64,000 nucleotides of DNA from Elioraea tepida (GTDB lineage Bacteria > Pseudomonadota > Alphaproteobacteria > Acetobacterales > Acetobacteraceae): contig NZ_CP076448.1 in NCBI RefSeq assembly GCF_019203965.1, positions 2,185,001 through 2,249,000 on the forward strand. The letters run 5' to 3'. Below the pieces are notes generated by a model. That model had not been told where the DNA came from and did not search any database. It was given only the letters and a program-made list of their open reading frames with translations. A program made the translations under genes and the position numbers. Below, piece after piece: positions 6,864-14,830 of this stretch; positions within the stretch are counted from its first letter, which is position 1, and the number at the start of each line of letters is the position of its first letter.

Positions 6864-7496
6864 TCACACCTTGGGCTTGGTCAGACGAGCGAGCTCTTCC
6901 CGCAGCGCCTCGAGCTCGGCCTTCAGCTTGGCGAGCTGGGCTGCCTCGTCCTGGGCCTGGGCGGGCGGCTCCGCCCCTTGCGCCGACGGCGGGCGATAGA
7001 ACGGGGCGAACAGGCTGAACGCGCGCTCCAGCATCGCCATGTTCTGCTTGCCCACCTCCTCCATCGAAAAGGGGAAAAAGCCCTCCATCGTCTGCTGCAT
7101 GGCCCGCCGGAACTGCTCCTGCTGGCGGGCGAAGGCGGCCATCGCGTGCTCGAGATAGCGCGGCACGAGGCCCTGGAGACTGTCGCCGTAGAAGCTGATC
7201 AGTTGGCGCAGGAAGCTGATCGGCAACAGGTTCGACCCCTTGGCTTCCTCCTCGACGATGATCTGCGTCAGCACCTGGCGGGTGATGTCCTCGCCCGTCT
7301 TGGCGTCATAGACCACGAACTCGCGCCCGTCCTTCACCATCTGGGCGAGATGATCGAGCGTGACGTAGGACGAGGCCTCGGTGTTGTAGAGACGTCGGTT
7401 CGCATACTTCTTCACCACCACGGGTGAAGGTGTGTCCGCCGCCTGCGCTCCCGGTTCCTTGGTCACCGCCTCGGCGGCGGGGGCGGGCTCTGCCAT
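6864..7496 (-). CDS. phaR: Polyhydroxyalkanoate synthesis repressor PhaR
   Basis: A 210-residue regulator that binds PHB granules and DNA and represses PHA genes until polymer forms (known for the family). The N-terminal PHB/PHA accumulation regulator domain is visible as VKKYANRRLYNT with SSYVTLDHLAQMV and V-DAKTGEDITR, followed by a region with an ISFLRQLISFYG motif and an acidic alanine-rich coiled C-terminus. The ATG at 7496 is chosen over the longer frame because GGGGA precedes it at normal distance. It is divergent from the PhaE/PhaC-like pair; a GCACTGC motif upstream could be its own operator. Confidence 0.95.
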   Translation of the reverse strand: MAEPAPAAEAVTKEPGAQAADTPSPVVVKKYANRRLYNTEASSYVTLDHLAQMVKDGREFVVYDAKTGEDITRQVLTQIIVEEEAKGSNLLPISFLRQLISFYGDSLQGLVPRYLEHAMAAFARQQEQFRRAMQQTMEGFFPFSMEEVGKQNMAMLERAFSLFAPFYRPPSAQGAEPPAQAQDEAAQLAKLKAELEALREELARLTKPKV

Positions 7497-7524
7497 GGAA
7501 GTTCCCCGTTTCCTCAACCGTGTT

Positions 7525-7531
7525 GCACTGC
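7525..7531. promoter_or_regulatory. Candidate PhaR operator upstream of phaR
   Basis: The divergent region between phaR and the PhaE-like gene contains TTGCACTGCATGC at 7523-7535. The heptamer GCACTGC recurs at 9232-9238 in front of phaA. TGC-rich half-sites are known PhaR targets in other alphaproteobacteria; the link here is inferred from position and the shared motif. Confidence 0.4.
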
Positions 7532-7657
7532 ATGCTAGCACGGCCGCCTTGCCGCGGCGCATTATTCTCGGCCGTTGGAGGAAACGGGGCGGCTCAGGCC
7601 AGGGTTCCTGGGGCTTCCGGGCTTCTCTAATGTCTCTCCCCGCAATGGGCGAGGGTG

Positions 7658-8170
7658 ATGGACGGCGGCAACGGCCAGAAGACGAGCGGTGCGGAAGGTG
7701 GCGGCGGGGGCGGCGGCGAACGCGAGGCGCCGTTCGGCCCAGACCTTTCGTCGCTCGCGCGGGACTGGATCGAGCTCTGGCAGAGCGAACTCGCCGCTCT
7801 GGCGGCCGAGCCGGAGACGGCCGAGACCTGGGCGCGGCTCGCCGCCCTCTGGGCAGGCCTTGCCGCGGCGGGCCTTGGTGCCCTGCCGCGTGGTGTGGCC
7901 GATGAGCGCTTCCGTCCGGGAGGCGACGCCGGGGCCGGGCGAGAGTTCTGGTTCGGCGCTACGACCAGGGGCGCCGGCGCCGCTCCGTCGCCGCGGCCCG
8001 CGGCCGGTGATCCTGCATCTGATCCTGGCGTGGCTCCGTCACAGCGCCTGCTCGAGCGCATTCTCGATCGTCTCGATGCCATCGAGCGCCGGCTCGCGGA
8101 GCTGGAGGAGCGCCACGGCGGCGGCGCGGGCGGCGCGCGTCGTCGAGGCGATCGGCGCCGAGGGGCTTGA
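7658..8170 (+). CDS. PhaE-like/unknown small helical protein encoded before the PhaC-like hydrolase
   Basis: A 170-residue protein I cannot place firmly. It starts with a glycine-rich linker, then a helical SLARDWIELWQSEL segment (residues about 32-45) and a C-terminal amphipathic helix [23 protein letters not shown] segment with D-W---W near the N-terminus and a C-terminal coiled coil recalls PhaE subunits of class III PHA synthases, but it is half the usual PhaE length. Start ATG 7658 follows a GCGAGGG ribosome site; a GTG one codon earlier is possible. Its end overlaps the start of the next gene by about 95 bases, so the two are likely co-expressed. Confidence 0.6.
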   Translation: MDGGNGQKTSGAEGGGGGGGEREAPFGPDLSSLARDWIELWQSELAALAAEPETAETWARLAALWAGLAAAGLGALPRGVADERFRPGGDAGAGREFWFGATTRGAGAAPSPRPAAGDPASDPGVAPSQRLLERILDRLDAIERRLAELEERHGGGAGGARRRGDRRRGA

Positions 8171-9218
8171 GCCGGCCGCGCTGCCGGCGGCGGTGTTCGC
8201 CGAACTCCTGCGGCAGGACGCCGCCCTGATCGCCGGCATCGCCGCCTATCGACGCCACCCCTACGCCCGCGCGCTCGCCGATCCTCCCGTCGTCTGGGCC
8301 GAGGGCGGCTCGCGTCTTCTCGACTACGGCGCGACCGCACCCGACCGTGCCGCCGGGCCGGTGCTGCTCGTCGTCCCCTCGCTGATCAACCGCGCCTATG
8401 TGCTCGACCTGATGGAGGAGGCGAGCTTCCTCCGCTGGCTCGCCGCGCGCGGGATGCGGCCGCTCCTGCTCGACTGGGGCTGGCCCGGCGAGGCGGAACG
8501 GCGTTTCGGCCTCACCGACGTGATCGCCGGCCGGCTCGAGCGCGCCCTCGTCGCGGCGGCCGCGATCGCGGGTGAGCGCGTGGTAATGGTCGGCTACTGC
8601 ATGGGAGGGCTCTTGGCGCTCGCCTCGGCGCTGCGCCGGCCGGAGCTCGTGCGTGCCTTCGCCGCGCTTGCAACCCCGTGGGACTTCCACGCCGGCGACC
8701 CTGCGCGGGCGCGGGTCGCCGCCTCGCTCCTGCCGCTCTTCGAGCCGCTGATGGCGTTCCACGACGCGCTTCCGGTCGATGCGCTTCAGGTTCTGTTCAC
8801 CGCTCTCGACCCCTATGGCGTGGCGGCGAAGTATCGCGCCTTCGGCAGGCTCGCCCAGGACAGCGCGCGCGCCCGGCTGTTCGTCGCGCTCGAGGATTGG
8901 CTCGCGGACGGCGTGCCGCTTGCCGCGCCGATCGCTCGCGAGTGCCTGGGCGGCTGGTACGGGCGGAACGAGCCCGCCCGCCTTGCCTGGAACGTGGCGG
9001 GGCTGCCGGTCGATCCTCGTGCGCTCGCCGTCCCGGCGTTCGTCGCGGTCCCCGGGCGTGATCGGATCGTGTTGCCGGAGGGGGCGCGGCCGCTCGCGCG
9101 GCTGATTCCCAAAGCGGTGCTGCACGAGCCGTGTTCGGGGCATATCGGGATGGTGGCCGGCTCCGGGGCAGAGGCGGCGCTGTGGCGTCCCTTCGCGTCC
9201 TGGATGTCCGGGCTGTAG
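8076..9218 (+). CDS. PhaC-like alpha/beta hydrolase (short PHA synthase-type)
   Basis: About 380 residues with the PHA synthase fold. The family motifs are [23 protein letters not shown] (equivalent to the synthase DWG-P region), the lipase-like box GYCMGG with the nucleophile cysteine near residue 175, an aspartate in VPGRDRIV and the histidine in SGHIGMV. All three catalytic positions of class III PhaC are therefore present. It is about 200 residues shorter than class I PhaC and close to class III. The frame is open from 7689 but only the part after about 8100 looks conserved; the only ATG near it is 8076 (GTG 8193 is an alternative). Polymerase or thioesterase/depolymerase activity is undecided. 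Confidence 0.75.
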
Positions 9219-9318: not shown

Positions 9319-10494
9319 ATGACCGATGTCGTGATCGCCTCCGCCGCCCGCACGCCCGTCGGCGCCTTCAACGGCGCGTTTGCAAGCCTTCCCGCCCATG
9401 CGCTCGGCGCAGTCGCGATCAAGGGCGCGCTCGAGCGGGCGAAGGTGGCCGCCGAGGAGGTCGACGAGGTGGTGATGGGGCAGATCCTCGCCGCCGGGGC
9501 GGGCCAGAACCCCGCCCGCCAAGCCGCCATGCTGGCCGGCGTGCCGCAGGAGCGCACGGCCTACGGCATCAACCAGCTCTGCGGCTCGGGCCTGCGCAGC
9601 GTCGCCCTCGGCTACCAGGCGATCCGCACCGGCGATGCCGCGATTGTCGTCGCCGGCGGGATGGAGAGCATGACGCAGGCGCCGCACTGCGCCCAGCTCC
9701 GCGCGGGCGTGAAGATGGGCGACTTCCAGATGGTCGACACCATGATCAAGGACGGGTTGTGGGACGCCTTCAACGGCTACCATATGGGCAACACCGCCGA
9801 GAACGTGGCCCGGCAGTGGCAGATCACCCGCGAGCAGCAGGACGAGTTCGCCTACCAGAGCCAGCGCAAGGCGGCGGAAGCGATGGCGGCCGGGCGGTTC
9901 CGCGACGAGATCGTTCCGGTGACGGTGAAAACCCGCAAGGGCGAGGTGGTGGTCGACACCGACGAGCACCCCAAGCCCGACACGACGCTCGAGGTGCTCG
10001 CCAAGCTCCGGCCCGCCTTCGCCAAGGACGGAACCGTCACCGCCGGAAACGCCTCCGGTATCAATGACGGTGCGGCCGCGGTGGTGCTGATGAGCGCGGC
10101 GGAGGCGGAGCGCCGCGGCATCACGCCGCTCGCGCGCATCGTCTCGTGGGCGACCGTGGGGGTCGACCCCGCGATCATGGGCACCGGCCCCATTCCCGCC
10201 TCGCGGGCGGCCTTGAAGAAGGCCGGGTGGAAGATCGACGATCTCGACCTCGTCGAGGCGAACGAGGCCTTCGCGGCCCAGGCCTGCGCGGTGAACAAGG
10301 ACCTCGGCTGGGATCCAGCGAAGGTGAACGTCAATGGCGGGGCGATCGCGCTCGGCCACCCGATCGGCGCCTCCGGCGCGCGGGTGCTGACGACGCTGCT
10401 CTACGAGATGGCGCGCCGCGGCGCGAAGAAGGGGCTCGCCACACTCTGCATCGGCGGCGGCATGGGAATCGCCATGTGCGTCGAGCGCGGCTGA
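9319..10494 (+). CDS. phaA: Acetyl-CoA acetyltransferase (beta-ketothiolase)
   Basis: Condenses two acetyl-CoA to acetoacetyl-CoA, first step of PHB synthesis. The 391-residue protein has the thiolase start [14 protein letters not shown], the acyl-accepting cysteine in [11 protein letters not shown] (about residue 88), the GGMESMT motif, the active-site histidine in [16 protein letters not shown] and the second catalytic cysteine in LCIGGGMG. Length is exactly typical. ATG 9319 is preferred over an in-frame ATG at 9262 because [13 protein letters not shown] is the usual thiolase N-terminus. Followed 268 bases later by phaB. Confidence 0.96.
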
Positions 10495-10762: not shown

Positions 10763-11485
10763 ATGGCACGCGTCGCACTCGTCACCGGCGGCACCCGCGG
10801 CATCGGTGCCGGGATCTCGAAGGCGCTGATCGCCCAGGGGCGACGGGTCGTCGCTTCTTATGCCGGAAACGACGCGGCGGCGGCCGCCTTCGCTGCCGAG
10901 ACGGGCTGCAAGGTGTACAAGTTCGACGTCGCCGATTTCGAGGCGTGCAAGGCGGCGGTGGCGCAGATCGAGGCCGAGGTCGGCCCGATCGAGATCCTCG
11001 TCAACAACGCCGGCATCACTCGGGATGCGACGATGCGGCGGATGACGCGCGAGATGTGGGACGCCGTGATCGACACCAATCTCGGCTCCTGCTTCAACAT
11101 GTGCAAGCTCGTCTGGGACGGGATGGTGGCGCGCAAGTTCGGCCGCATCGTCAACATCGGCTCGATCAACGGCCAGGCCGGGCAGTACGGCCAGGTGAAC
11201 TACGCCGCCGCGAAGTCGGGCATCCACGGCTTCACCAAGGCGCTCGCGCTCGAGGGGGCGCGCGCGGGCATCACCGTGAACGCCGTCGCCCCCGGCTATA
11301 TCGACACCGACATGGTCCGTGCCGTGCCCGCGGACGTGCTCGAGAAGATCATCGCCAAGATCCCGGTCGGCCGGCTCGGCACTGTCGAGGACATTGCCCG
11401 CTGCGTGGCGTTCCTCACCGCCGACGAGGCCTCCTTCATCACCGGCTCGACGCTTTCGGCGAACGGCGGCCAGCACATGTACTGA
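10763..11485 (+). CDS. phaB: Acetoacetyl-CoA reductase
   Basis: NADPH-dependent short-chain reductase giving (R)-3-hydroxybutyryl-CoA, the PHB monomer. The 240-residue protein has the nucleotide-binding TGGTRGIG, NNAGITRDATM, the catalytic serine in NIGSINGQAGQ-GQ and the YAAAKSG tyrosine-lysine pair, as well as the PhaB-type ending SANGGQHMY. The start has AGGGGAGG about 10 bases upstream. With phaA it forms the monomer supply for the PhaC-like protein; class and cofactor choice (FabG versus PhaB) follow from the QHMY end and the phaA neighbour. Confidence 0.95.
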   Translation: MARVALVTGGTRGIGAGISKALIAQGRRVVASYAGNDAAAAAFAAETGCKVYKFDVADFEACKAAVAQIEAEVGPIEILVNNAGITRDATMRRMTREMWDAVIDTNLGSCFNMCKLVWDGMVARKFGRIVNIGSINGQAGQYGQVNYAAAKSGIHGFTKALALEGARAGITVNAVAPGYIDTDMVRAVPADVLEKIIAKIPVGRLGTVEDIARCVAFLTADEASFITGSTLSANGGQHMY

Positions 11486-11634: not shown

Positions 11635-12807
11635 ATGGCGGTGCGCGTCCACTTCGCGACCAACCGCGAGGAGATCGTCGAGAACGGCGTTGTCACCGGG
11701 TTCGGCCCGCGGCTGAATCCAAAATCGCCGCTCTGGCTCCGCTACGGCGCCGCCGACATGGAACCCGACAGGAGGGGGGAGACCCCGTTCCGGATCGCGA
11801 GGCTCGACGTCGCGCCGGAGAACATTCCGGGCACCCCGGGCGCGGACGGCGAGACGGTCCTGCTCGGGTCGGATGCGGTGTTCGAGGGCCTCAGGCAGCG
11901 CCTGATCGACAACGAGGCCGACCTCGTGCTGATGCTGCATGGCTTTGCCTGCGACTTCCGGAACGCCCTCTCGAACGCCGCCGCGATCAAGACGGCCTGG
12001 GGAACGAGATCCTTCCCCATCGAGACGGCGATGTTCTCCTGGCCGGCGGACGGCAAGGTCGTTCCGTTCCTGAGCTACGCCTCCGACCGGGACGACGCGC
12101 GCTCTTCCGCCAAGGCGATCGCCCGCGCGCTGCAGAGGCTCCTTGGCTACCTGAAGGACCTCCAGGACGAGGCGGTCAAGGAGAGGCTCAAGGCACAGCG
12201 CGAGAACCGCGAGCCGAAGATCGATCTCTGTCACGCGAAGATCCATCTCGTCGCGCACTCGATGGGGACTTACGCGCTGCGCAACGCGCTTCAGGCCTTG
12301 ATCTCGGATTACGGCGGCAAGCGGCTGCCGCGGGTGCTGCACACGATCTTCCTGATGGCGGCGGACGAGGACAACAACGCCTTCGAGCACGAGACGAAGC
12401 TCGCCCGACTGCCCGAGCTCGCCGAGCAGGTCTATGTGTATTTCGCGCGCAACGACAACGCGCTCGTGATCAGCGACGTCTCGAAGGGTAACCCTGACCG
12501 GCTCGGCGCCACCGGCCCGCGCACCCTCACCTCGCTTCCGCAGAAGGTGACGCTCGTCGATTGCACCGAGGTCTCCTCCACCGGCTCGGTGAAGGACGCG
12601 AACCACCAGTACTACCGCAAGCGCGCCGAGGTGATCGCCGATGTGCGCCAGGTGCTCGCGGGCAAGGCGCCGGAGGCGGTGACGGGGCGGGAATGGATCC
12701 CCGCGCGGAGCTGCTTCCGCATCAAGGCAGCGAAGAAAGAGGAGCATAAGCATGGCAAGGCTCGTCCAGTACGAGGAGGCGCCGCCGGAGGTCCGCGCGG
12801 TCTATGA
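11635..12807 (+). CDS. Alpha/beta hydrolase, DUF900 family
   Basis: A 390-residue predicted cytoplasmic hydrolase. The start is MAVRVHFATNRE, typical of DUF900; an LMLHGFACDF oxyanion-side motif is near residue 100, and the nucleophile serine lies in LVAHSMGTYALR. Acid and histidine residues cannot be placed with certainty. GGGAGGGG upstream supports the start. The last 56 bases overlap the next gene in another frame, and the final ~18 residues look like unconstrained read-through. Substrate unknown; DUF900 proteins are esterase/lipase-like. Confidence 0.8.
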   Translation: MAVRVHFATNREEIVENGVVTGFGPRLNPKSPLWLRYGAADMEPDRRGETPFRIARLDVAPENIPGTPGADGETVLLGSDAVFEGLRQRLIDNEADLVLMLHGFACDFRNALSNAAAIKTAWGTRSFPIETAMFSWPADGKVVPFLSYASDRDDARSSAKAIARALQRLLGYLKDLQDEAVKERLKAQRENREPKIDLCHAKIHLVAHSMGTYALRNALQALISDYGGKRLPRVLHTIFLMAADEDNNAFEHETKLARLPELAEQVYVYFARNDNALVISDVSKGNPDRLGATGPRTLTSLPQKVTLVDCTEVSSTGSVKDANHQYYRKRAEVIADVRQVLAGKAPEAVTGREWIPARSCFRIKAAKKEEHKHGKARPVRGGAAGGPRGL

Positions 12808-13147
12808 CGAGATCAAGGCCGCGCGGAACATTCCGGATGTCAACAATTTCTGGAAGGCCCTCGCTGTCCACCCGCCGACGCTCTGTCGCACCCGGGACTC
12901 GCTGCGCGAGGTGATGGGCCCCGGCGTGCTCGACCCGCTGACGAAGGAGATGCTCTCTCTCGCTGTCTCGACCGCGAATGGCTGCGCCTACTGCATGGCG
13001 AGCCACACAGCGGCGGCGCGGGCGAAAGGCATGACGGAGGAGATGCGCGGCGAGCTCCTCGCCATTGTCGCGATGGCGGCGGAGACCAACCGGCTCGCGG
13101 ACGCCTACGACGTTTCGATCGATCCGGCCTATCGCGACCCCGGCTAG
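12752..13147 (+). CDS. Carboxymuconolactone decarboxylase-family (AhpD-like) protein
   Basis: A 131-residue all-helical protein of the CMD/AhpD superfamily. The signature KEMLSLAVSTANGCAYCMASH contributes the CxxC pair and nearby histidine used by peroxidase-type members, so a thiol peroxidase role is more likely than decarboxylation. ATG 12752 has AGAGGAG upstream. It overlaps the end of the DUF900 hydrolase by 56 bases. Its TAG stop shares a CTAG palindrome with the stop of the convergent patatin gene. Specific substrate unknown. Confidence 0.88.
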   Translation: MARLVQYEEAPPEVRAVYDEIKAARNIPDVNNFWKALAVHPPTLCRTRDSLREVMGPGVLDPLTKEMLSLAVSTANGCAYCMASHTAAARAKGMTEEMRGELLAIVAMAAETNRLADAYDVSIDPAYRDPG

Positions 13148-14283
13148 CCCACCCGTCGCGGCGCGAGCGCGGCCCAGGCGGCGAGCGCCTCCGCCGCGGT
13201 GCGGTGGCCGATGTCGGGGTGGCCGGTCGCGCGCTGCATCCGCACCGGCTCGTTCGGCACGAAGCCCGCGAGCCAGCGCTGGCCTAGGCGCTCGATAACC
13301 GCGACGTCCTCCGCGGCAATCGCGTCCATGTCGAGCGCCGCGAGGCGGGCATGCGGCGGGTCGGTCGTCGCGGGCCCCGGCATCGGGTTCAGCCGTACCA
13401 CCGGGCCATCCGTGATCGCATCGCGCGGATTCGTAGGCAGCGCTCCGCCGAGCATGACATGCGCGTGGAAAGGAGCGCTGCTTGCGGGTTCCTTCAGGAT
13501 CGCGCGGAGCATCATGCCAACCTCGCGCGAAAGCCGCTGCAGCTTGAGCCCGAGGTCGTCGGAGGGGGGCGGCAGGCGCTTGTCGGGCACGAGCACGTTC
13601 CCGCTGCCGAGCGAGAGCAGGACGATTTCCCGAGGCTGCCAGCCATAGGCGAGCGCCTCGATCACCGCCACGGCGGCGGGGCAGTTCCAGCCGGCGATCG
13701 CGCCATCCCAGAAATTGCCGGCGGCGAGGCGGGCCGCGTCGTCGAAATAGAGGATCGGCGCGTTGGAGGAGGCATGGATCGCCTCGGCGAGCGTCACCGA
13801 GGGCGGGCGCCCCGCCTCGACGGGCTCGACCGACGCCGCCGGCGCGGTGAGGTCGGAGCGGAACAGGACGCCCTTCTCCTGTTCCACCGCATAAGCCGCG
13901 ATCAGGACGTGCGGCAGAGGGCGCCCGCGATTGCCCGTGCGCGAGGCCACCTCGGGCAACGGCCGGTCAGTCGGCCCGAGGATCGCGCGCAGGCCGGCCA
14001 GCTTGCCGTCGGTGCTGTAGCGCGCCGGAGGCGAGGCTCCGGCGACGAAGATCTGCCGCCGCCGCGCCTCGCTTCGGAACAGCTCCATCAGTTCGCCGAG
14101 GGTGAGGTCCATCAGCAGGCCGCCGAGAACGAGGCTCCCGCCGGAATTGGCGGCGACGAAGTCGAACTCGGCAAGCACATCGTGCCCGGGCGTCTCTGCG
14201 CCATAGGCCTGGATCAGCGACCAGACCTCGAGCAGCGCCCAAGAGCCGCCGCCGTCGAGGGAGAGGATGCGCCGACGTGCCAT
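13144..14283 (-). CDS. Patatin-like phospholipase/acyl hydrolase
   Basis: A 379-residue predicted lipid acyl hydrolase. It begins MARRRILSLDGGG, the glycine-rich oxyanion motif of patatins. The nucleophile elbow appears as AANSGGS, a variant of GxSxG with asparagine before the serine, and the catalytic aspartate is in FWDGAIAG (DGA/G motif). ATG 14283 is preceded by AGGAG 9 bases upstream; the open frame extends further upstream but is not coding-like. It is the last gene of the minus-strand gloB-gst-DUF985-patatin series. Activity on membrane lipids or storage polymer is possible, unproven. Confidence 0.85.
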   Translation of the reverse strand: MARRRILSLDGGGSWALLEVWSLIQAYGAETPGHDVLAEFDFVAANSGGSLVLGGLLMDLTLGELMELFRSEARRRQIFVAGASPPARYSTDGKLAGLRAILGPTDRPLPEVASRTGNRGRPLPHVLIAAYAVEQEKGVLFRSDLTAPAASVEPVEAGRPPSVTLAEAIHASSNAPILYFDDAARLAAGNFWDGAIAGWNCPAAVAVIEALAYGWQPREIVLLSLGSGNVLVPDKRLPPPSDDLGLKLQRLSREVGMMLRAILKEPASSAPFHAHVMLGGALPTNPRDAITDGPVVRLNPMPGPATTDPPHARLAALDMDAIAAEDVAVIERLGQRWLAGFVPNEPVRMQRATGHPDIGHRTAAEALAAWAALAPRRVG

Positions 14284-14380
14284 GGCCCTGTTCTCCTGCC
14301 GGATCGGTGCGCGACCGAAGCGCGAGCCTGCACATGCCCCGGGCGCGGCGCAACGGCCGCAGCCGCGCGCCTGTGCCCGG

Positions 14381-14830
14381 TCACCGCCTCGGCGTCGGCC
14401 GCCAGTCGGGCGGGGCGAGCTCGAACCCCTCGAACCGAAACGCCGGGCTGACGGTGCAGGAGACGAGCGTCCACCGCCCGAGACTCGCCGCGGTCTGCCA
14501 CCACCCGGCGGGGACCAGGCGCTGCGGGTGCTGCCCCGCTCCGAGATCGGGCCCCAGCAGATGCGCCTCGGCATCGTGCCCGTCCGGGGAGAGGGTGAGC
14601 ACAAGCGGCGCCCCCGCGTGCCACAGCCACAGTTCCGCGGCATCCACCCGGTGCCAGTGCGAATGCCGCTCAGCCGCGAGCAGGAACAGGATCGCCGTGC
14701 CGGCGCCGCGCGACCCGTCCTCGGGGGCGTCGCGCCACGTCTCGCGATACCACCCGCCCTCCGGGTGGGGGGAGAGGCCGAGGGCCTTCACCACCTCCTC
14801 GGCGCGCAGGCTCGGGTTGCGGAGGTCCAT
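14381..14830 (-). CDS. DUF985-family cupin protein
   Basis: A 149-residue cupin of the YML079/DUF985 type. Visible features are LSPHPEGGWYRETW near residue 20-35, the SHWHRVD-AE-W metal-site-like motif, and LVPAGWWQTA with VSCTVSPAFRFEGFEL at the end, all standard for the family. The biochemical role is not established; plant and fungal members bind small ligands. It sits 5 bases after the glutathione transferase gene and about 100 bases before the patatin. Confidence 0.9.
   Translation of the reverse strand: MDLRNPSLRAEEVVKALGLSPHPEGGWYRETWRDAPEDGSRGAGTAILFLLAAERHSHWHRVDAAELWLWHAGAPLVLTLSPDGHDAEAHLLGPDLGAGQHPQRLVPAGWWQTAASLGRWTLVSCTVSPAFRFEGFELAPPDWRPTPRR

What the first reader, a model, noticed from the sequence alone, without database searches (positions are those of the whole stretch)
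7497..9218. Short PhaE/PhaC-like pair inside a phaR-phaA-phaB locus
The PHB locus has no class I phaC. Instead a 170-residue helical protein and a ~380-residue PhaC-like protein with the class III-type Cys-Asp-His triad (GYCMGG, RDRIV, GHIGM) overlap by ~95 bases in different frames. This could be a reduced two-subunit synthase, or a polymer thioesterase with its partner.
Basis: partly seen in the sequence, partly recalled or inferred. Interest (0 to 1): 0.58.

Follow-up and report, generated by a model that had tools for sequence, protein, structure and literature searches.

The report
Hidden-subunit bioplastic synthase-like gene pair
Two overlapping genes in a bacterial bioplastic-storage locus encode a divergent bioplastic (PHA) synthase-type enzyme and a small helical partner; the pair recurs in many Alphaproteobacteria, the partner was not annotated in the records checked, and the pair nearly always occurs in genomes that also have an ordinary synthase.

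Summary
The PhaC-like gene (C) most likely starts at ATG 7902, not about 8076. It then encodes 438 residues with a conserved N-terminal motif, [R/K]xGPRPLxLHL, and overlaps the small gene (E) by 269 nt out of frame. Substitution patterns in relatives show that both frames are selected. The order phaR(divergent)–E–C–phaA recurs in most Acetobacteraceae loci examined and in many other Alphaproteobacteria. In the 7 Azospirillum plasmid records read, E is not listed and C is called 'alpha/beta fold hydrolase'. C is a PhaC by fold, by catalytic triad and by tree. It forms its own clade on the class III side, with Asp-Arg where the class I–III references have Asp-His. Published primers suggest that R. 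rubrum PhaC1, a reported PHA polymerase, belongs to this clade. E has the layout of a shortened PhaE, but homology to PhaE is not proven. This genome also carries an intact class I phaC, as do 79 of 80 other carriers tested outside Acetobacteraceae. Best reading: a two-subunit class III-like PHA synthase acting beside class I PhaC. A non-polymerising companion remains possible.

The parts
6864..7496 (-). phaR, PHA synthesis regulator, divergent from the pair
   Evidence: TIGR01848 155.5 bits, over the curated cut-off; a PhaR match on the opposite strand in 74 of 80 related loci by my count of the listing, the 6 misses being at contig starts
7658..8170 (+). E: 170-aa helical PhaE-like protein (ATG 7658; GTG 7655 also possible)
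   Evidence: ORF; Shine-Dalgarno energy -6.4 at ATG 7658; AF2 helices 27-49, 52-75, 127-154; no hit for this protein in NCBIfam or Pfam, and only weak hits, mostly coiled-coil, in some relatives
7902..9218 (+). C: 438-aa PhaC-like protein, most likely start ATG 7902
   Evidence: TIGR01836 125 bits, PhaC_N 26.9 bits over Pfam cut-off; the conserved N-terminal motif needs a start at or before 7902
7902..8170 (+). 269-nt out-of-frame overlap, C frame = E frame + 1
   Evidence: Coordinates; dual selection shown in Roseomonas-type relatives, not in this genome itself
7986..8021 (+). C residues 29-40, RRRGPRPVILHL, conserved N-terminal motif of the clade
   Evidence: R30, G32, P33, R34, P35, H39, L40 invariant in 28 sequences
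8036..8119 (+). E residues 127-154, coiled-coil helix, inside the overlap
   Evidence: AF2 block pLDDT 88-89 for residues 131-150, 64 on either side; E-frame selection in the matching part of relatives
8598..8600 (+). C Cys233, nucleophile in GYCMGG
   Evidence: Cys in 27 of 27 clade rows of the tree alignment and in 80 of 80 related loci
9060..9062 (+). C Asp387, followed by Arg instead of the His of class I-III
   Evidence: Asp 27 of 27; next residue R 25, K 1, Y 1 of 27, against His in 19 of 19 class I, II, III, rhizobial and haloarchaeal rows; ten further PhaC-like rows have His 6, Thr 3, Ala 1
9141..9143 (+). C His414, catalytic His (GHIGM)
   Evidence: His 27 of 27 clade rows; by pattern 77 of 80 loci, with one Gln (L038) and two pattern misses whose His is seen elsewhere in the output
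9319..10494 (+). phaA, acetyl-CoA acetyltransferase
   Evidence: TIGR01930 496 bits, over cut-off
10763..11485 (+). phaB, acetoacetyl-CoA reductase
   Evidence: TIGR01829 346.6 bits, over cut-off

Best explanation
The locus encodes a two-subunit, class III-like PHA synthase. Its catalytic subunit C is a divergent PhaC (Cys233/Asp387/His414). Its small subunit E is a shortened PhaE-type protein, a helical hairpin plus a coiled coil, encoded in an overlapping reading frame. I infer that E and C are translated in coupled fashion. I further infer that E binds C, helps it dimerise, and helps bring it to the nascent granule. The pair would polymerise the 3-hydroxybutyryl-CoA made by PhaA and PhaB, whose genes follow on the same strand, under PhaR control. 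It works beside a separate class I PhaC, which is probably the main synthase. Shown here: the dual-coding overlap in relatives, the conserved gene neighbourhood, the clade, the triad and predicted fold, and the co-occurrence with class I. Inferred: E-C binding, co-transcription, polymerisation in this organism, and the division of labour with class I.
For: PhaC models are the best family hits. A profile of the clade scores class III PhaCs at 146-173 bits, class I at 62-68 and class II at 48-59. The tree puts the clade (100% support) on the class III side, apart from class I/II. The top 15 PDB fold hits are all PHA synthases; VIA Z is 28.0-31.0 for seven PHA synthase entries against at most 25.4 for lipases. 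The triad is conserved. Neighbours are phaR, phaA and, here, phaB. Of 3,527 ORFs in 40 loci, the E profile hits (E<1e-3) only 21 ORFs beside C and one 133-aa PhaE-type protein beside a class III-like PhaC. R. rubrum phaC1 primers printed in PMC9999600 encode VEDWLN and PLANIR; EDWL[NAG]D occurs in 26 of 27 clade sequences against 0 of 29 others. R. rubrum phaC1 is described in a phaC1-phaA-phaB operon, and over-expressing it raised PHA 1.4-fold (PMC4026134, passages). [quoted passage not shown]
Against: Asp-Arg replaces the Asp-His of the class I-III references. A class I PhaC is present in 79 of 80 other carriers tested, so polymerisation may not be this pair's job. In R. rubrum the main synthase is PhaC2, and phaC1 mRNA was undetectable in one study's conditions (PMC9999600, passages), though another reports Rru_A0275 transcript rising in CO culture (PMC11268599, passages). 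In A. brasilense a phbC mutant made no PHB granules; the review puts that phbC on the strand complementary to phaAB, so it is probably not this operon's gene (PMC10383645, passages). The E-PhaE profile match (score 29.9) is hardly above reversed controls (28.5, 29.2). Over-expression of PhaC3 gave 1.25-fold and PhaC2 1.8-fold, so 1.4-fold is a modest effect. The R. rubrum sequence itself was not read, and a search for its primer region in 80 genomes found nothing.
Confidence: 0.5

Rival explanations
1. C is a PhaC-derived companion of class I PhaC that no longer polymerises usefully. With E it primes, terminates, releases or tunes chains (thioesterase- or alcoholysis-like), or forms a mixed complex with class I PhaC.
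For: Near-constant co-occurrence with class I PhaC, also in draft genomes of 1.4-1.5 Mb: 79 of 80 carriers tested outside Acetobacteraceae and 74 of 81 Acetobacteraceae carriers. Asp-Arg instead of Asp-His. Weak phenotypes in R. rubrum.
Against: PMC9999600 reports enzyme activity for R. rubrum PhaC1, citing a work I did not read. The full triad and PhaC fold are kept. One 99%-complete genome (G071) has the pair and no class I PhaC match.
Confidence: 0.33
2. C is an intracellular PHB depolymerase or oligomer hydrolase, standing in for PhaZ.
For: This genome has no PhaZ match (TIGR01849, E up to 0.001). C is an alpha/beta hydrolase with Cys-Asp-His.
Against: No PhaZ model among C's hits at E up to 1. 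PhaZ over cut-off is about as common with the pair (43 of 58) as without it (18 of 22) (my count). R. rubrum phaC1 over-expression raised PHA.
Confidence: 0.08
3. E is not a separate protein. Either the E frame is open only because of high GC, or E and C are one protein joined by a +1 frameshift.
For: High-GC frames are often open. In relatives C's ATG has Shine-Dalgarno strength near background (mean -4.05 against -3.58 kcal/mol; phaA -6.21; E -5.85, but that is the best of several candidate starts). The C = E + 1 frame relation held in the loci where I looked.
Against: In overlap nt 109-135, changes fall at E-codon position 3 (29 of 40), not at C position 3 (7 of 40). E's hairpin, upstream of the overlap, is conserved. 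Of 76 loci, 70 have an ATG within 16 codons before the C motif, which points to independent initiation. In the window itself C's ATG scores -5.3, not weak.
Confidence: 0.09

Closest known systems
Rhodospirillum rubrum PhaC1 (Rru_A0275) of the phaC1-phaA-phaB operon
   Same: Same operon place. Its published qPCR primers encode the clade's VEDWLN and a PLANIR stretch that would fit the LDP...F region about 27 residues before it. Low identity (14-18%) to its own PhaC2 and PhaC3 is reported (PMC4026134, passages).
   Different: Its sequence was not read here, and no E partner is mentioned in the passages seen.
Class III PHA synthase PhaE-PhaC (Allochromatium type)
   Same: PhaC without the class I N-terminal domain, a helical partner next to it, and the nearest clade in profile and tree.
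   Different: C scores far below the TIGR01836 cut-off (125 against 365.3). It has Asp-Arg, the EDWLND motif and an N-terminal GPRP motif. E is about 105-215 aa as I modelled it, while most class III PhaE ORFs found here exceed 350 aa, and E overlaps phaC out of frame.
Rhizobial plasmid class III PhaE-PhaC (R. johnstonii pRL10)
   Same: Alphaproteobacterial two-gene phaE-phaC pair, with a 219-aa PhaE.
   Different: Different clade, Asp-His kept, annotated genes do not overlap.
Class IV PhaR-PhaC (Bacillus)
   Same: Small partner of about 20 kDa (recalled, not from a call).
   Different: Not tested: no class IV sequence was obtained.
Class I PhaC
   Same: Same fold and triad.
   Different: No class I N-terminal domain; a class I PhaC is present separately in the same genome.

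Membership tests
PhaC superfamily | Cys-Asp-His triad in an alpha/beta hydrolase fold closest to PhaC | tested here: met
Class III PHA synthase, PhaC subunit (TIGR01836) | Score over the curated cut-off of 365.3 bits | tested here: not met
   125 bits
Class III PHA synthase, PhaC subunit (TIGR01836) | Groups with class III PhaCs in a tree | tested here: inconclusive
   On the class III side with its own long stem; class IV was not in the tree
Class III PHA synthase, PhaC subunit (TIGR01836) | Asp-His at the catalytic Asp (seen in all reference rows here; its status as a defining feature is my reading) | tested here: not met
   Arg after Asp in 25 of 27, His in 0 of 27
PhaE subunit of class III synthase | Sequence homology to PhaE | tested here: inconclusive
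   No PhaE model among the hits of 25 members; hhalign 29.9 against reversed controls 28.5 and 29.2, and 100 block-shuffled controls at most 22.8; the E profile finds one 133-aa PhaE-type protein
PHA synthase | Polymerises hydroxyacyl-CoA | not testable with these tools
   Needs an enzyme assay; literature on R. rubrum PhaC1 only as passages
Class I PHA synthase (TIGR01838) | Score over cut-off and full-length N-terminal domain | tested here: not met
   87 bits against 622.65
Intracellular PHB depolymerase PhaZ (TIGR01849) | Match to the family model | tested here: not met
   Not among the hits of C (from nt 8001) at E up to 1; no place in the genome at E up to 0.001

The most novel reading that the evidence does not exclude
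Alphaproteobacteria carry a further class of PHA synthase, typified by R. rubrum PhaC1. Its second subunit has been overlooked because its gene is hidden in a 130-275-nt out-of-frame overlap with phaC. The enzyme is a dedicated partner of class I PhaC rather than a substitute, for example by starting granules or chains that the class I enzyme extends. Tests of PhaC1 alone would then have assayed half an enzyme.
Probability: 0.35. Interest if true: 0.75.

Novelty: new variant of a known kind. Interest (0 to 1): 0.56.

Why it matters
PHA synthases are the key enzymes of bacterial bioplastic and are sorted into four classes. This pair would add a distinct alphaproteobacterial form. It could explain why R. 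rubrum PhaC1 looked unimportant, if it was tested without a partner, and it would show a conserved gene missed by annotation because it overlaps its neighbour too far. It also raises a testable question: why do bacteria with genomes of only 1.4-1.5 Mb keep two PhaCs?

Tried and rejected
Start at ATG 8076 / overlap of 95 nt: rejected, because the conserved motif and ATG lie upstream. PhaZ stand-in: not supported (PhaZ over cut-off in 43 of 58 clade carriers and 18 of 22 non-carriers; the 80 genomes were chosen by me, and at least one carrier, G071, lacks class I). E as the N-terminal domain of class I PhaC: hhalign gave an 11-column match, probability 1.2, and the E profile's best hit on a class I ORF was E 0.27. 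E as a phasin: best hit of the E profile on ORFs of the two phasin loci was E 1.1. E-PhaE homology by hhalign: collinear over 92 columns, but reversed controls score almost the same over 25-40 columns, so not claimed. Foldseek of the E model against PDB: no match. The E protein in plasmids by tblastn: no match; the E frames in Azospirillum were found by profile and position instead. Search of 80 genomes for R. rubrum's primer region (exact degenerate pattern): no match, so the R. rubrum locus was not read. PADLOC: no hit. Jin and Nikolau 2012 is not held. Class IV sequences were not obtained, so the tree lacks them. Literature: the searches listed no paper that, by title and start of abstract, describes the E gene or the overlap; passages were read in PMC4026134, PMC9999600, PMC11268599, PMC10383645, PMC6761214, PMC12174442, PMC10646324 and PMC5658603 only. 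In PMC10646324 the R. rubrum synthase used was PhaC2, not PhaC1.

Rows dropped. The statistics were conditioned on motifs, and 3 of 82 rows had no coiled-coil match; the unconditioned test is. There, 20 loci with a 215-nt overlap were cut to 16 that differ by more than 3%. In the tree I used 8 of 28 rows of A1 and 19 other clade members, and left out clade members without a recognisable N-terminal motif and the 30 loci L087-L116. E lengths were capped at 210-215 aa when starts were chosen. One search kept the best 80 of 156 relatives. One search tested 80 of the 123 other genomes that matched.

Full report
Observation. The window holds phaR (minus strand), a 170-aa ORF (E), a PhaC-like ORF (C), phaA and phaB. 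C's best curated models are PHA synthases, with class III first (TIGR01836, 125 bits; class I 87; class II 46), all below cut-off; Pfam PhaC_N passes its cut-off. E itself has no NCBIfam or Pfam match; some relatives have weak hits, mostly coiled-coil.

Correction of the gene model. A motif, R[R/K/Q]GPRP followed by LxLHL, was found in 77 of 81 ORFs. Of the 76 related loci with it, 70 have an ATG within 16 codons before it. Residues R30, G32, P33, R34, P35, H39 and L40 are invariant in 28 aligned sequences. In the window the nearest upstream start is ATG 7902, giving 438 aa and a 269-nt overlap with E; GTG 7890 or 7893 cannot be excluded.

Both frames are real. Sixteen non-redundant loci with an ungapped 215-nt overlap were tested without choosing columns by motif. 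In nt 1-81, parsimony changes at C positions 1/2/3 are 13/7/78, the pattern of a selected C frame. In nt 82-135 they are 16/46/19 and in nt 109-135 4/29/7; C position 2 is E position 3, so here the E frame is selected. In nt 136-162 they are 0/9/7, so both frames look constrained. Nt 163-213 shows no clear preference (18/23/27), which is against a clean picture over the whole overlap. Controls outside the overlap are 18/6/77 (C only) and 21/9/51 (E only). In relatives C's ATG has a mean Shine-Dalgarno energy near background, while phaA's is clear; E's value is the best of several candidate starts and so flattered; in the window C scores -5.3 and phaA only -3.7. Coupled translation is my inference.

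Distribution. By my count, a PhaR match is present in 74 of 80 loci (the 6 misses at contig starts), an E match in 74 of 80 (3 of 6 misses at contig starts), and phaA follows in 78 of 80. PhaB was found after phaA on the same strand in only about 11 of 80 stretches. In 120 Acetobacteraceae genomes the C clade is present in 81 and class I PhaC in 84 (E at or below 1e-100); 74 have both, 7 the clade only (one with a class I fragment; completeness 73-94% except G071 at 99%), 10 class I only, 29 neither (my count, with three weak hits at E about 1e-30 set aside as other PhaCs). In 289 genomes drawn across Alphaproteobacteria, 124 match the clade profile at E up to 1e-25, some weakly. In 30 clade loci taken from these genomes, E was found beside C in 21; the 9 misses are mostly divergent members. 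Sixteen loci outside Acetobacteraceae show overlaps of 131-275 nt. The 7 Azospirillum plasmid records have the E frame between phaR and C running into C, with no CDS listed for it; C is named 'alpha/beta fold hydrolase'. That gene table lists only genes with protein accessions, so another kind of entry could be hidden.

Companion of class I. This genome has an intact, stand-alone class I phaC. Of 80 other clade carriers outside Acetobacteraceae (of 123 at hand), 77 have class I over cut-off and 2 more have strong or partial matches (541 and 430.8 bits); the one without, G363, is 87% complete. So the pair rarely stands alone. G071 is an exception worth naming.

Structure and active site. AF2 of C: pLDDT 80.7, pTM 0.80; the N-terminal motif region is modelled with low confidence. 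The first 15 Foldseek matches are PHA synthases. VIA Z is 28.0-31.0 for seven PHA synthase entries, then 24.4-25.4 for gastric and lysosomal lipases. The triad aligns in all 27 clade rows. After the Asp, class I, II, III, rhizobial and haloarchaeal rows have His (19 of 19) and ten further PhaC-like rows have His 6, Thr 3, Ala 1; the clade has Arg in 25 of 27. The meaning of this change is unknown.

Tree. 56 sequences, LG+G4+F, 1000 ultrafast bootstraps: the clade is 100% supported with a long stem, on the class III side; classes I and II lie apart. Class IV is missing and the rooting is a choice.

Is E a PhaE? The layout matches the C-terminal half of PhaE. A profile of E hits, among 3,527 ORFs at E<1e-3, only 21 ORFs beside C plus one 133-aa PhaE-type protein (L186). 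But direct profile comparison is no better than reversed controls. I treat it as 'works like', not 'is'.

Known member. R. rubrum phaC1 lies in a phaC1-phaA-phaB operon, and PhaC1-PhaC3 identities are given as 14.3, 18.4 and 50.2% (PMC4026134, passages). Its qPCR primers in PMC9999600 encode VEDWLN and PLANIR; EDWL[NAG]D occurs in 26 of 27 clade sequences and 0 of 29 others. Over-expression raised PHA 1.4-fold (PhaC2 1.8, PhaC3 1.25), and PhaC2 is the main synthase. PMC9999600 states that PhaC2's enzyme activity was lower than that of the other two, citing its reference 27, which I did not see; Jin and Nikolau 2012 stands in its list as 25 and is not held. One study found no phaC1 mRNA, another saw it rise (PMC11268599). 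In A. brasilense a phbC mutant made no PHB granules; the review places that phbC on the strand complementary to phaAB and a phbCAB operon on a plasmid of strain Sp245 (PMC10383645, passages).

Verdict. A real, conserved, partly overlooked two-gene module. Catalytic subunit: known superfamily, distinct clade. Small subunit: without a family model in the libraries searched. Function as a two-subunit synthase beside class I is the best reading at 0.5; a non-polymerising companion at 0.33.

Noticed in passing
window 11635-12807 (+): A DUF900-type alpha/beta hydrolase (PF05990, 98.7 bits) follows phaB, also near phaB in two Elioraea loci (L004, L005). The genome lacks a PhaZ match, so this could be a PHB-related hydrolase.
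   Followed up: no
L177 (G086), L178 (G064), L179 (G059): Some Acetobacteraceae carry a different class III PhaE-PhaC pair of rhizobial type. G086 (100% complete) shows only that PhaC: no class I and no member of this clade.
   Followed up: partly
L186 4385-4784 and 4885-5953: A very short (up to 133 aa) PhaE-type protein stands beside a class III-like PhaC; it looks intermediate between PhaE and E.
   Followed up: partly
L175 (G071): A 99%-complete genome with the E-C pair but no class I PhaC and no PhaZ match; phaB is near but phaA was not found in the 13-kb stretch.
   Followed up: partly
L038 (C protein): The catalytic His is replaced by Gln (GQVGM) in this one member.
   Followed up: no
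L206 7782-11981: Three transposase (DDE, IS4/5-type) fragments lie downstream of the class I phaC of this genome.
   Followed up: no
L010, L021 (record titles): Two close relatives come from MAGs titled Solirubrobacterales and Nitrosovibrio; the loci look like Acetobacteraceae, so the titles or bins may be wrong.
   Followed up: no
window 13144-14643 (-): A long ORF with an ILSLDGGGSWALLEVWSL stretch looks patatin-like (recalled motif, no family search run).
   Followed up: no
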